A program made the position numbers and the translations under genes. This document shows positions 2,187 through 37,084 of a stretch of 64,000 nt of DNA, one piece after another. The stretch comes from Sarcomyxa edulis (Eukaryota > Basidiomycota > Agaricomycetes > Agaricales > Mycenaceae), in NCBI GenBank assembly GCA_009761415.1, contig QUOL01000007.1:992001-1056000 (forward strand), given 5' to 3'. Below the pieces are notes generated by a model. The model was not told the DNA's origin, ran no database searches, and saw only the letters and a program-made list of their open reading frames with translations. The stretch's first letter is position 1; every line of letters begins with the position of its first letter.

Positions 2187-4639
<2,453 letters not shown>

Positions 4640-16121: not shown

Positions 16122-19100
16122 TCAAAAACTAGAGAGCGCCCATTCGGATGCTAGGCCTTCAGAAACACTACGTAGACTCTGCCCATCGTCGCCTTCGTCG
16201 CCTTCAGTCTGGGGGTACTGGTGAAGTAAGTCCACGACTTCGGACGTGCTAACCAAGGCTTCCGCCAGGACAGTTGAGGTGTCTCCTTGTTTGAGCTGAT
16301 ATTTCATCCATTCCAGTGCAGTGGAAACACGTTTCACCAAAGATTCTGTTCTCCGACTTGGTTTATCTGAAACTATACGGATGGTATATCTGGCGATAGG
16401 AGGGATGAACCTCTTGTCGAGCAAGTCGGCGCGATAGAGCTTCCACGCCTTCAGGACCAGCATCCATCTCAACTCTTCCTCAGGATTGCTGTCTGACTGC
16501 AACCACGAGAATTGAAGGAGAATATGCACCAAACGAGACCAGAGGTCTCGTTTATAGGATTCCGGGTTTGTGAATGCACTCCATATCCCTTCTCGAGGAT
16601 CTGTAACAATGTCTCGATCCGAGTAGATGCTCTTCAACTTCTGCGCTAGATCAATGCATCGTGCAAGGTGTCCATCTTGCTGAAGAGCAGCTTTCCATAC
16701 ATCATTGCTCGAGAGGGAATATATTATATCCAGATATCGCTTATCGCGATGATAGTTGAGGAAGCCATCGGGGTATAGTGGCTCTGAACCTCCAGGCGAT
16801 GAAAGGGACTCGTCTGGAAAAGCAGCGGAACGGAGGGCGCTCGAGAAGCCCATAGCAAGTAGACTCGACTGAAAAGCCTCATAGTCCGGACGTTTCATTA
16901 CATGTTTAATAATGATGTCCGCGAGCTTTAAAGCAGAATGACGGAGCCGCGTAGGATGTTGACTATCCATCGACTGAGTGACGATGTGAATGAACGCCGG
17001 ATTGATCATACCAGCAGCAACCTCGGGTAGCTGGCTCAACACCAGAAAACCGTCTGCCACGGCAGTATTATCATTCTTTCTATGATAATGATCCACGAAA
17101 CGGGAGACCCATACAAAGTCTTCTGTAGTAAGTCCAGGTCCATTGTAGCCCCGTGGAGGTTCGTGGGACCATCGGTCAGCACGTTCATATCTTACGTGCC
17201 ACATACGTTGACCCATCCCGGTCTCCAGAGTAGGAGGGCCCGCGGTTAGTACGCTCAGGCGGAGTGCTGAACGCGAGCGTTTCCAATAATCGAGTCGATA
17301 TTTCCAGTCACGACGGACTGAATCAGGATGGTCAGGACGTAGAATTACTTCGGGAGTGCGGCGCGCCATCTGTCGGGATAGATGGAGGCTCCAGAGGGGT
17401 ATGTGTTTGTTGTAGAATATGTTGCGGAATTCCTGTACTTCGATCAGGTTCGAAAGTGGCTCGAGAAGCTCGAGCGCATATAGACCTTCATCGGACCATT
17501 TTGGAGTATCAGTTACAATGGGTAGTGCTTTCTCTACCTGGTCTAGAACCGATGTCAGGATTCGGGAAACGTCCTCGCTACACACACATTAGTAAGAAAA
17601 TTTTGGTACCGTCAAAATAACCCACACTCACCTTTTATCGAATTTTGTGAGCTCCTTCCGATCTATGGATTCTGACATACCCATAAGCAATCCAGCCGCA
17701 AGAAGACAATCTGACAAGATGTTCCTAGCAGGCAGAGGGCGTTGCGATAGCAGTCGAGAGATGACGTCGATAGTCTGGAGCTTCGTGCTTTTCGGGACAT
17801 CTGGATCGCATAGACAGTGTAGAACCGAGTGAGATACCCAGATAAGGTGTGCATCTGGTACGTGTGGCAAAGATGGCGCCCATTGGTCGGGTTCGTACAT
17901 ATGCGTAGTGATGAATAGGTGGTGAGTAACGAGCGACCATCGAAACGTTTCCTTCAGCACATCGCAGATGAACTTCAGATCTACATCTGGTGCTTGGAAG
18001 CTGGAGAGCCATTGGAAATCCGGAAAATTAGGCGTGCGTGTGCCCATGATAGTGTCTCTGCGTTTGGTATGCCACGCCGGATCATAGAATGACAACATTT
18101 GGTCTTCGTTTGTATTTCTTCTCTCGAGGTATAAGTGGAGCAACGCCTTCCCCGACGCAAATGCCCTATCCCTCCCTCGCGCTACCAATTGCGGTTTTCC
18201 ATGCCGGCTCCTCTCGAAGCAGTCCAAGAATGTGTCGCGTAATTGTATCAGGACAGTGAGGACGTCGAATTCGACAGGCCATTCAATGTCTGGCGTCATG
18301 TAAGCTGCAGCCATGATTATTCCTGGATCTGTCGAAGTTTCCAGAATCCAGGCAACAGAGGGCGCATCAAGACGGTCGATAGACTGCCCTTGTACGATAA
18401 GAGTAGAATGTAACGAGGCAGATGAAGATACGAGTTTGTTACGAATGACTTCCTTCGAATGTTGGAGCAGGTGAGGGAGGGCTTCCAAAACGCGGACTGT
18501 TGCGAAGAGCAGAACCCAAAAGAACCGTTGGCACAATGTTTTCAGGGTGCGATCTGGCGTGTACCGATAGTGGAGGTCACGGCCAACAATATATTGCCGA
18601 ATGTGTGAAGCGTATGGGCCGGTGAATCTGGCAGCAGCATAGACTCGACTGGAGAAGATGTTGAGCATGGTACGGAGAAAGTTTGACAACGGCGTTTGGA
18701 AAGGGCAATCTGGGGATACTAGAGACGAGGTGACGATGAAGACATAGAAAAGGACGCCAAATGCCACAGCGCTGACCAGAATAGAGGCAATGATGTGTTG
18801 CAGCGTCCAGATGAAAACAGTGAGGCCAATACCAAAGAGAAGCAACGAGACTTGAAGTAACAGGGGCAACGATTCCATAACGGCATGGAAGTGCCACACC
18901 TGCAGTCCATTGAGTTTCTGCTGCCTATATTTGCCGCGAGCATCTATAGTTCCCCTGCGGCCAATGCGTGAGTATTGGCTGAGCCACTGTTTCCCCAAAA
19001 CTGCCCCAAGAGCAGCAAGAAGACTTGCGGCTAAGCTAGCATACAACACGCTCTGAATCCATACGGTAGTACGGTTCGGCCCATTCCACTGTGGGAGGTC

Positions 19101-19620
19101 GAGATTCTGATCAGCGAATGCGGTGCTGTTCATGTTATGAACTATAGTCTTCAGAAGGACGGTAATAGTGTCGTTCGGGTCTGGGCTAAGATCAGACTGC
19201 ATCGCAGTGACAAATGAAGTGCTGACAGCGGAAAAGAGACCTGCCTATCGTAGGTTGATTAGAGCATCAAGACAAAAGACCAAAAGAAGGAAGCCTTTAC
19301 AAAAATGAGAACGATGTCTAGATCGCTGTTGTATTTCTTGAGAAACTCTCCGTCGTACTCTTCAGCTTCTATCTTATACGTCGTCCAAAAACGTGTCCGC
19401 GTATCTTTGTCTTCACGACGCACGATTGTGGATTCCTTGAGCGTACTCAAAATCTCGTCTAGGGTTCCGCTCAGCCTAGAGGAATAAAGTCAATCCTCCT
19501 CATTCGAAGTGCATCTAACCGTACATACTGCTGCTCCCGCGTAGTATTGTGGTTGGCTAGTACCTCAGCAGTCATGGGCTGATTGGTAGGGTCGTGATGG
19601 ATATTTCCTGGAATTGACAT
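16122..19620 (-). CDS. DUF6535 multi-TM protein
   Basis: Function unknown. It belongs to a family expanded in Agaricomycetes. Exon 1 runs from ATG 19620 to about 19528; exon 2 has STLKESTIVRREDKDTRTRF and EAEEYDGEFLKKYNSDLDIV, the conserved start of DUF6535. Exon 3 carries the membrane block: VLYASLAASLLAALGAVLGK, then QWLSQYSRIG, VWHFHAVMESLPLLLQVSLL and LFGIGLTVFIWTLQHIIASI, and finally SAVAFGVLFYVFIVTSSLV. About 800 residues of helical, mostly soluble sequence follow. An intron at about 17587-17634 joins FDK to SEDVSRIL, linking the two long frames into one protein of over 1,000 residues. Possible roles in such genes (membrane-associated signalling) are unproven. The next features rightward are transposon-type fragments, consistent with a dynamic region. 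Confidence 0.85.
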
Positions 19621-24905: not shown

Positions 24906-26286
<1,381 letters not shown>

Positions 26287-36315: not shown

Positions 36316-37084
36316 ATGCAATTCTCTAACCTCCTCGCAGTCATCGCCCTCGCCACCGCTGTGGTCGCGAGACCTGCTTTACTATCGAAAGCAATTCACG
36401 CTGGTGAGCCTTCCTTCTTTACCTCCTCTGTAGTCATGTTGATGTTTACTTAAATCAACTGCTTACAGATCGCTTTGAGCTCGAAGGTAACTTCGGCAAG
36501 CGTGTCGATGAGACGCACGGTAACCTTTTGTTTTCCCTGAAATATAATCTGGTTACTTACAACTTGACAGGACTGGCTAGGTCGCCAGAAGCTGAACTAG
36601 AAGGCAACTTTGGCAAGCGCTCAGACGCGACTCACGGTAGCCTTGTGTCTCGTTTATACTGACACTGAGCTCTGCTGATCTGAACGTGTACAGACCTTGT
36701 CAGATCGTTCAACTACGAGCCAGACCTCGAAATACAGGGCAACTTTGGCAAGCGTGCCGAAGAGACTCGCGGTATGTCTCGTCGTTGATTGCATAAACCC
36801 GGGTTTTGACTTTCAAAGGAAACAGAGCCTGCTAAGTCCTTCAACTACGAACCAGACCTTGAGGTCGAAGGCAACTTTGGCAAGCGGGCTGCTGGGCTTA
36901 TCAGTGCTGGTGATTGCATTATCAGACCAATCTTACGAACGCTGGGTCACTGACGCCTCGATGGCTTCTCACAGAGATTGCATACCTCGAGGGCAATTTT
37001 GGCAAGCGCACCAACGGTGTGTCCTTGTTCCCTTTTTGAAATAAGTCTTCTTACTCATATATCATCTTTACAGATGATTGGTGA
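36316..37084 (+). CDS. Secreted Kex2-processed repeat peptide precursor
   Basis: I recognise no named family member. Seven exons (36316-36403, 36469-36519, 36571-36636, 36694-36771, 36826-36903, 36975-37016, 37074-37084) give 137 residues. MQFSNLLAVIALATAVVARP is a classical signal peptide. Five units follow, each ending in GNFGKR: LEGNFGKR, LEGNFGKR, IQGNFGKR, VEGNFGKR and LEGNFGKR. The third and fourth units also share SFNYEPDLE. KR is the Kex2 cleavage site in the Golgi; the Gly before it would become the peptide C-terminus, or a substrate for amidation if the enzyme exists. Every repeat is on its own exon and all introns are phase 1. The layout matches the fungal Kex2-processed repeat proteins, which include alpha-factor-like pheromones, the Ustilago repellent and RiPP precursors. 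No tailoring oxidase gene is adjacent. The peptide's role is unknown. Confidence 0.88.

What the first reader, a model, noticed from the sequence alone, without database searches (positions are those of the whole stretch)
36316..37084. Undescribed Kex2-processed repeat peptide precursor (five GNFGKR units)
Seen: a signal peptide followed by five units, each ending in the near-invariant octapeptide (L/I/V)(E/Q)GNFGKR, and a 137-residue total. Known: Kex2 cuts after KR in the Golgi, and fungi use this layout for pheromones, repellents and RiPP precursors. Basidiomycete mating pheromones, in contrast, are CaaX lipopeptides. Inference: this gene secretes a family of similar short peptides, perhaps about 15-24 residues each after trimming, ending in EGNFG. 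I know of no named fungal peptide with this core.
Basis: partly seen in the sequence, partly recalled or inferred. Interest (0 to 1): 0.88.

Follow-up and report, generated by a model that had tools for sequence, protein, structure and literature searches.

The report
Fungal repeat-peptide precursor with GNFGKR ends
A mushroom-type fungus carries a small split gene whose protein looks built to be secreted and cut into five similar short peptides; it belongs to a known broad class of fungal peptide precursors, and a likely sister gene elsewhere in the same genome sits in a cluster for chemically modified peptides.

Summary
A seven-exon gene model at 36316-37084 (+) encodes 139 aa (not 137): a signal-like N-terminus and five units ending [LIV][EQ]GNFGKR, with all six introns in phase 1. 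Within GNFGKR the five copies differ only synonymously. This is a KEX2-processed repeat protein (KEP), a class already described across fungi, mushrooms included (PMC7329392, PMC9769878). GNFGKR is in 0 papers of the searched library, and no relative scored E<=10 in 5.8 billion proteins. The new result is a likely sister precursor on contig C36: 15 units of the type EEFTDDIQSNYG(K)R, again all-phase-1 introns, and a shared F-x-YEPD...N[FY]GKR frame. It lies beside two UstYa oxidases, a halogenase-like ORF and transporters, the layout of a dikaritin RiPP cluster. The window gene has no UstYa hit on its contig, and Phe stands where the sister has Tyr. Best reading: a precursor of linear, unmodified secreted peptides that shares ancestry with a RiPP precursor. 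Expression, processing and function are untested. New member of a known kind; interest 0.5.

The parts
36316..37084 (+). Whole gene model, seven exons, 139 aa, all six introns phase 1
   Evidence: GT..AG at all six introns
36316..36403 (+). Exon 1: signal-like peptide MQFSNLLAVIALATAVVA and start of the first unit
   Evidence: hydropathy only, no predictor
36469..36519 (+). Exon 2: unit 1 end LEGNFGKR (core 36480-36503)
36571..36636 (+). Exon 3: unit 2 end LEGNFGKR (core 36597-36620)
36694..36771 (+). Exon 4: unit 3 SFNYEPDLEIQGNFGKR (core 36732-36755)
36826..36909 (+). Exon 5: unit 4 SFNYEPDLEVEGNFGKR (core 36864-36887); matches exon 4 at 78% over 68 nt
36975..37016 (+). Exon 6: unit 5 end LEGNFGKR (core 36986-37009)
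37074..37084 (+). Exon 7: last residues DDW and stop
   Evidence: if the last intron were retained, the five units would be unchanged (frame)

Best explanation
The gene encodes a KEX2-processed repeat protein. A signal peptide takes it into the secretory pathway; a Golgi kexin cuts after each KR, Kex1 trims the KR, and a family of short acidic peptides ending in [EQ]GNFG is secreted: VDETHGLARSPEAELEGNFG, SDATHDLVRSFNYEPDLEIQGNFG, AEETREPAKSFNYEPDLEVEGNFG, AAGLISAEIAYLEGNFG and one from behind the signal peptide; four of the five could be shortened at a single R or K. With no UstYa hit on its contig and no Tyr in the conserved core, the peptides most likely stay linear. The gene probably shares an ancestor with a UstYa-clustered precursor in the same genome and grew by duplication of phase-1 exons. 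Shown by computation: gene model, repeats, silent-only changes in the core, a kexin gene, the sister gene and its neighbours. Inferred: secretion, cleavage, linear state, common ancestry, exon duplication. The role (acting on other organisms, or on the hypha itself) is a guess from other KEPs.
For: Repeats and splice model; shuffles; GNFGKR copies: 0 nonsynonymous and 20 synonymous differences summed over 10 non-independent pairs; kexin gene with S8 and P_proprotein domains; no UstYa among 18 matches on C38; sister precursor with the same intron phase and a shared unit frame, shuffle tests 0 of 5000 with GKR removed and 3 of 5000 with N[FY]GKR removed; published KEPs of Agaricomycetes give linear peptides (PMC9769878, parts 1-4 of 9 read).
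Against: No transcript or peptide; signal peptide not tested with a predictor; no homologue at E<=10; the database E-value linking the two precursors is only 0.12; UstYa enzymes elsewhere could act in trans; peptide database searches handle repetitive, many-exon genes poorly.
Confidence: 0.6

Rival explanations
1. It is a dikaritin-type RiPP precursor whose peptides are oxidised or cyclised in trans by one of the UstYa enzymes encoded elsewhere in the genome.
For: The sister precursor lies beside two UstYa genes; shared unit frame; 18 UstYa exon matches in the genome.
Against: No UstYa match on C38; the conserved core has Phe, not Tyr; 65.6% of repeats in KEPs with a DUF3328 neighbour contain Tyr against 38.2% without (PMC7329392). 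Only two of the five units contain the upstream YEPD Tyr.
Confidence: 0.15
2. The peptides are C-terminally amidated: Gly-Lys-Arg is the animal amidation signal, giving ...GNF-NH2.
For: Gly precedes the basic site in 5 of 5 window units and 15 of 15 sister units; PMC7329392 notes GKR cleavage in animal prohormones.
Against: No match to PF03712 or PF01082 in this genome, but those searches had no working control, so absence is not shown; Gly also ends the ustiloxin core YAIG before KR without amidation (PMC6514808 passages).
Confidence: 0.06
3. It is an alpha-type mating pheromone or similar self-signal read by a STE2-like receptor.
For: Secreted repeat layout shared with ascomycete alpha-pheromones; basidiomycete KEPs with STE13 signatures exist (PMC6339444 passages).
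Against: STE13 dipeptide XA/XP follows KR in 1 of 5 places; no STE2 match, though that search had no control ringing; the genome's receptors found are STE3 (26 exon matches, 22 of them on C37, 4 on C23, none on C38).
Confidence: 0.04
4. The peptides are structural, coating the hypha in the manner of Ustilago maydis Rep1 peptides.
For: Same kind of Kex2-cut precursor (PMC6339444 passages); the short constant GNFG end could serve packing (inference).
Against: The predicted peptides are acidic (2-7 D/E each); nothing here tests surface binding; Rep1 was not compared.
Confidence: 0.08
5. It is not a working gene: a decayed or chance repeat.
For: No transcript evidence; no orthologue found.
Against: Shuffles gave at most 2 copies of any 6-residue word; silent-only changes in GNFGKR; consensus splice sites with one phase throughout.
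Confidence: 0.03

Closest known systems
KEX2-processed repeat proteins (KEPs) of Agaricomycetes, e.g. Coprinopsis cinerea KEPs (PMC9769878); surveys PMC6339444 and PMC7329392
   Same: Signal-like start, repeated units, dibasic KR after each unit, small size; no DUF3328 neighbour, as in most surveyed basidiomycete KEPs (1577 of 1680 by the counts)
   Different: Core [EQ]GNFG not found in the text searched; supplementary tables could not be read, so absence from the surveys is not shown
Sister precursor on C36 of the same genome (C36:1004956-1006059, minus)
   Same: Six introns all phase 1, F-x-YEPD...N[FY]G before a basic site, signal-like start MQ...
   Different: 255 aa, 15 near-identical units, several units per exon in four exons, Tyr in the core, UstYa pair and halogenase-like ORF next door
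Dikaritin precursors (ustiloxin UstA, phomopsin PhomA, asperipin AprA)
   Same: Signal peptide, repeats, KR sites; ustiloxin core YAIG also ends in Gly before KR (PMC6514808 passages)
   Different: Those have UstYa-type genes in the cluster and Tyr cross-links; the window gene has neither

Membership tests
KEX2-processed repeat protein (KEP) | N-terminal signal peptide | tested here: inconclusive
   Hydrophobic stretch LAVIALATAVV, mean 2.84; no signal-peptide predictor available
KEX2-processed repeat protein (KEP) | Repeated short units | tested here: met
   Five units; shuffles never exceeded 2
KEX2-processed repeat protein (KEP) | Kex2 dibasic site between units | tested here: met
   KR after 5 of 5 units; actual cleavage not tested
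KEX2-processed repeat protein (KEP) | A kexin in the organism | tested here: met
   S8 domain 4.9e-30 and P_proprotein 3e-14 in one locus, C38 about 977 kb
Dikaritin RiPP precursor | UstYa/DUF3328 gene in the neighbourhood | tested here: not met
   18 genome matches, none on C38; capped, exon-wise search
Dikaritin RiPP precursor | Tyr in the conserved core for cross-linking | tested here: not met
   GNFG in 5 of 5; Umemura reports Tyr in only 65.6% of DUF3328-linked repeats, so this is not absolute
Dikaritin RiPP precursor | Modified, cyclic product | not testable with these tools
   Needs mass spectrometry
Alpha-type pheromone precursor | STE13 XA/XP dipeptides after KR | tested here: not met
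   VD, SD, AE, AA, TN: 1 of 5
Alpha-type pheromone precursor | STE2 receptor in the genome | tested here: inconclusive
   0 matches, no control rang
Basidiomycete lipopeptide pheromone | C-terminal CaaX box | tested here: not met
   Model ends NDDW
Amidated peptide precursor | Gly-Lys/Arg sites | tested here: met
   GKR in 5 of 5
Amidated peptide precursor | Amidating monooxygenase in the genome | tested here: inconclusive
   PF03712 and PF01082 silent, uncontrolled

The most novel reading that the evidence does not exclude
The two precursors in this genome are a natural matched pair for the proposed switch between linear and cyclised Kex2 peptides: one ancestral unit, kept with Phe and no oxidase neighbour in the window gene, and with Tyr beside a UstYa pair and a halogenase-like gene in the sister. 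Because exons 2-6 are symmetric phase-1 cassettes, either gene could gain, lose or skip units without losing the frame, so the peptide mix might even be set by splicing.
Probability: 0.27. Interest if true: 0.68.

Novelty: new member of a known kind. Interest (0 to 1): 0.5.

Why it matters
KEPs are widespread in fungi (1345 of 1461 strains in PMC7329392, abstract), yet most of their peptides have no known role. That paper proposes that linear KEPs came first and cyclised ones followed. Two related precursors in one genome that differ at the aromatic residue and in the presence of the oxidase would give the proposal a concrete test. The sister cluster is also a candidate dikaritin pathway, perhaps with halogenation, in a mushroom-type fungus: only 103 of 1680 Basidiomycota KEPs (6.1%) had a DUF3328 neighbour in that survey.

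Tried and rejected
Led nowhere or set aside. Homologue search with the window precursor: 753 candidates, none E<=10. Search with the sister precursor: only the 7994 candidates sharing most words were scored, one hit at E 0.42, P0001 of Mycena leptocephala. Its tail aligns with the sister's units (score 95, 0 of 5000 shuffles) but not clearly with the window gene (score 36, 94 of 5000 shuffles). Amidation families and STE2: silent without a working control. A degenerate DNA pattern for GNFGK plus a basic start, one mismatch allowed: 49 places genome-wide against 40 for the reversed control; of 8 exact places 5 are the window gene, and the other 3 (L008-L010) were fetched but not examined. The bacterial promoter and terminator scan does not apply to a fungus and was ignored. 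Literature: GNFGKR in 0 papers; for EGNFG, QGNFG, QSNYGK or DDIQSNYG 36 papers hold at least one term, the 15 listed hold QGNFG only and their titles concern SARS-CoV-2 or COVID-19, the other 21 were not seen; 'KEX2-processed repeat' with intron and exon, 0 papers; amidating monooxygenase with basidiomycete and fungal, 0 papers. Considered and set low: mating pheromone, CaaX pheromone, chance repeat.

The species was not identified. Agaricomycete affinity rests on named UstYa relatives (best Taiwanofungus camphoratus, 74%) and many STE3 matches.

Full report
OBSERVATION. A seven-exon model with six GT..AG introns of 51-65 nt gives 420 nt, 139 aa plus stop. The protein starts MQFSNLLAVIALATAVVA and holds five units ending LEGNFGKR, LEGNFGKR, IQGNFGKR, VEGNFGKR and LEGNFGKR, then TNDDW. 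All six introns are in phase 1, so exons 2 to 6 are symmetric and each carries one unit end. Exons 4 and 5 match at 78% over 68 nt. Whether the introns are related was not tested.

MORE THAN CHANCE, AND UNDER SELECTION. In the 769 nt one 6-residue word occurs five times; among 1000 dinucleotide-preserving shuffles, 994 had no 6-residue word twice and 6 had one twice. Within GNFGKR the ten pairwise comparisons of the five copies sum to 20 synonymous differences in 40.7 synonymous sites and 0 in 139.3 nonsynonymous sites. The pairs are not independent; put plainly, four of the six codons vary and each variant is silent. Over the eight-codon core, with the two codons before, the sums are 32 synonymous and 11 nonsynonymous. 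So the hexapeptide is held and the residues before it are looser.

THE GENOME. The window is C38:992001-1056000 of an unnamed 35.6-Mb, 40-contig assembly. The first UstYa gene described below has named relatives in Agaricomycetes (Taiwanofungus camphoratus 74%, Agrocybe chaxingu 67%, Mycena vulgaris 60%, Gymnopilus junonius 59%, Phlegmacium glaucopus 56%, 126 proteins at E<=0.001, 120 listed). The genome has 26 STE3 exon matches, 22 on C37 and 4 on C23. I take it to be a mushroom-type basidiomycete; the species is unknown. A kexin gene is present: the one P_proprotein match is at C38:977970-978137, about 50 kb upstream of the window gene, next to an S8 protease domain. Whether that closeness means anything I cannot say.

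THE SISTER PRECURSOR. Searched against its own genome, the window precursor found its own exons and one other place, on C36, at E 0.12. That place is a second precursor (C36:1004956-1006059, minus): a model of 255 aa, seven exons, six introns all phase 1, a signal-like start, and 15 units of the type EEFTDDIQSNYG followed by KR in 10 and by R, RR or RRRR in 5. Its first unit RGFSYEPDFTDDIQSNYGKR aligns with RSFNYEPDLEIQGNFGKR of the window. The local score of 61 was reached in 0 of 5000 shuffles with the GKR tail held, and in 0 of 5000 with NYGKR held (best shuffle 59); with GKR cut out of both it was 0 of 5000 (45, best shuffle 43), with N[FY]GKR cut out 3 of 5000. Equal intron phase in both genes adds to this but is not decisive. 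I regard common ancestry as likely, not proven. The reverse search, with a stitched sister query, found only sister exons.

THE SISTER'S CLUSTER. The two best UstYa (PF11807) matches of the genome lie beside this sister, at C36:1007435 and C36:1010345. Their spliced models, 267 and 284 aa, score 6e-59 and 9.4e-63 against PF11807 and both carry HQLHC and HLDHC; the first assumes one GC-AG intron. The first gene runs opposite to the precursor, start codons about 0.9 kb apart. Further out are an ORF with a Trp_halogenase match (1.2e-13, but only the first 81 of 458 profile positions, the FAD-binding end, and other FAD families match it too), an MFS-like protein (two ORFs, both below the curated cut-off) and an ABC transporter membrane region. 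This is the composition of a dikaritin RiPP cluster, with halogenation possible. A hypothetical protein of Mycena leptocephala (P0001) has a tail with GKR-bounded units that aligns with the sister's (score 95, 0 of 5000 shuffles), though its database E-value was 0.42 and its fit to the window gene is weak (36, 94 of 5000 shuffles). Two UstYa relatives of Agrocybe chaxingu bear consecutive gene tags, NLJ89_g5193 and g5194, so the paired arrangement may be old.

OTHER KEP-UstYa PAIRS. Of eight UstYa neighbourhoods fetched (17 stretches), two more hold arrays of DATDVDAYNYPVRK units: C13 about 502.4-503.2 kb, eight units by my reading of the DNA, and C9 near 603.7 kb, at least four; each is within about 2 kb of a UstYa match. 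On C13 each unit has its own exon, and the two junctions that I checked by eye are in phase 0. The repeat scans were crude; in the other five neighbourhoods I saw no array that I would call a KEP, but I did not examine them closely. Thus three precursors in this genome have a UstYa neighbour and Tyr in the unit; the window gene has no UstYa neighbour and Phe in the core. Three against one is a small count.

WHAT IT DOES. The layout is that of the KEX2-processed repeat proteins: 7878 in 1345 of 1461 strains, 2560 of them without homologues (PMC7329392; abstract, sections 6, 7, 9 and passages seen). In Coprinopsis, Lentinula and Pleurotus some were shown by peptidomics to give linear, little-modified peptides, and removal of six Coprinopsis KEP genes gave no visible phenotype (PMC9769878; parts 1-4 of 9 and passages seen). 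By analogy the window gene should release four peptides of 17-24 residues and one from behind the signal peptide, each ending in GNFG. The same paper reports cuts after single Arg when KEPs were expressed in Pichia; here that kind of cut, or one after Lys, could shorten four of the five units to FELEGNFG, SPEAELEGNFG, SFNYEPDLEIQGNFG and SFNYEPDLEVEGNFG. With no UstYa hit on C38 and Phe in place of Tyr I expect the peptides to stay linear. Their role is unknown; action on other organisms is a guess in line with that paper's discussion.

ALTERNATIVES. Modification in trans by a UstYa enzyme is the main rival. Amidation is suggested by the constant Gly before the basic site (5 of 5 and 15 of 15) but no enzyme was found, in searches without a working control. 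An alpha-pheromone role lacks STE13 dipeptides (1 of 5) and, as far as an uncontrolled search goes, a STE2 receptor. Among 29 window ORFs scanned with Pfam (10, 10, 9; chosen by size and place, not full gene models) those recognised above the cut-off were an isopropylmalate synthase, FMN oxidoreductases at two places, a transketolase C-terminal domain, an mRNA capping enzyme, DUF3074, glutamine synthetase, kinases at two places, an amidohydrolase and DUF6535: no evident tailoring cluster, but small or split genes could be missed.

VERDICT. New are the GNFG core, the uniform phase-1 cassettes and, above all, the sister precursor in a RiPP-type cluster, which turns an orphan peptide gene into one half of a testable pair.

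Noticed in passing
G000:C36:996001-1016000 (L031, L032): Likely RiPP cluster: 15-unit QSNYG(K)R precursor, two UstYa genes, halogenase-like ORF, MFS-like and ABC transporter ORFs.
   Followed up: partly
G000:C13 about 502.4-503.2 kb (L033, minus) and C9 about 603.7 kb (L035, minus): Two related precursors with DATDVDAYNYPVRK units beside UstYa matches; one unit per exon on C13.
   Followed up: partly
G000:C38:976471-979638 (L048, upstream of the window): Kexin-like gene (S8 and P_proprotein domains), the only P_proprotein match reported, about 50 kb from the window gene.
   Followed up: partly
G000:C37:377306-428411 and C23:1051697-1052754: Many STE3 pheromone-receptor exon matches, 22 on C37 and 4 on C23.
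   Followed up: no
G000:C12 about 648-649 kb (L039) and 622-623 kb (L042): Dense tandem repeats in opposite orientation near two UstYa matches, with the same translated words in both; probably one repeat family.
   Followed up: no
G000:C9 about 597.4-597.9 kb (L035): A short repeat array in several frames (RCFRR and others), nature unclear.
   Followed up: no
window 3574-4155 (+) and 25333-25968 (-): Two FMN-oxidoreductase (PF00724) ORFs on opposite strands in the same window, perhaps duplicates.
   Followed up: no
window 17631-19244 (-): A 538-aa open frame with DUF6535, family of unknown function.
   Followed up: no
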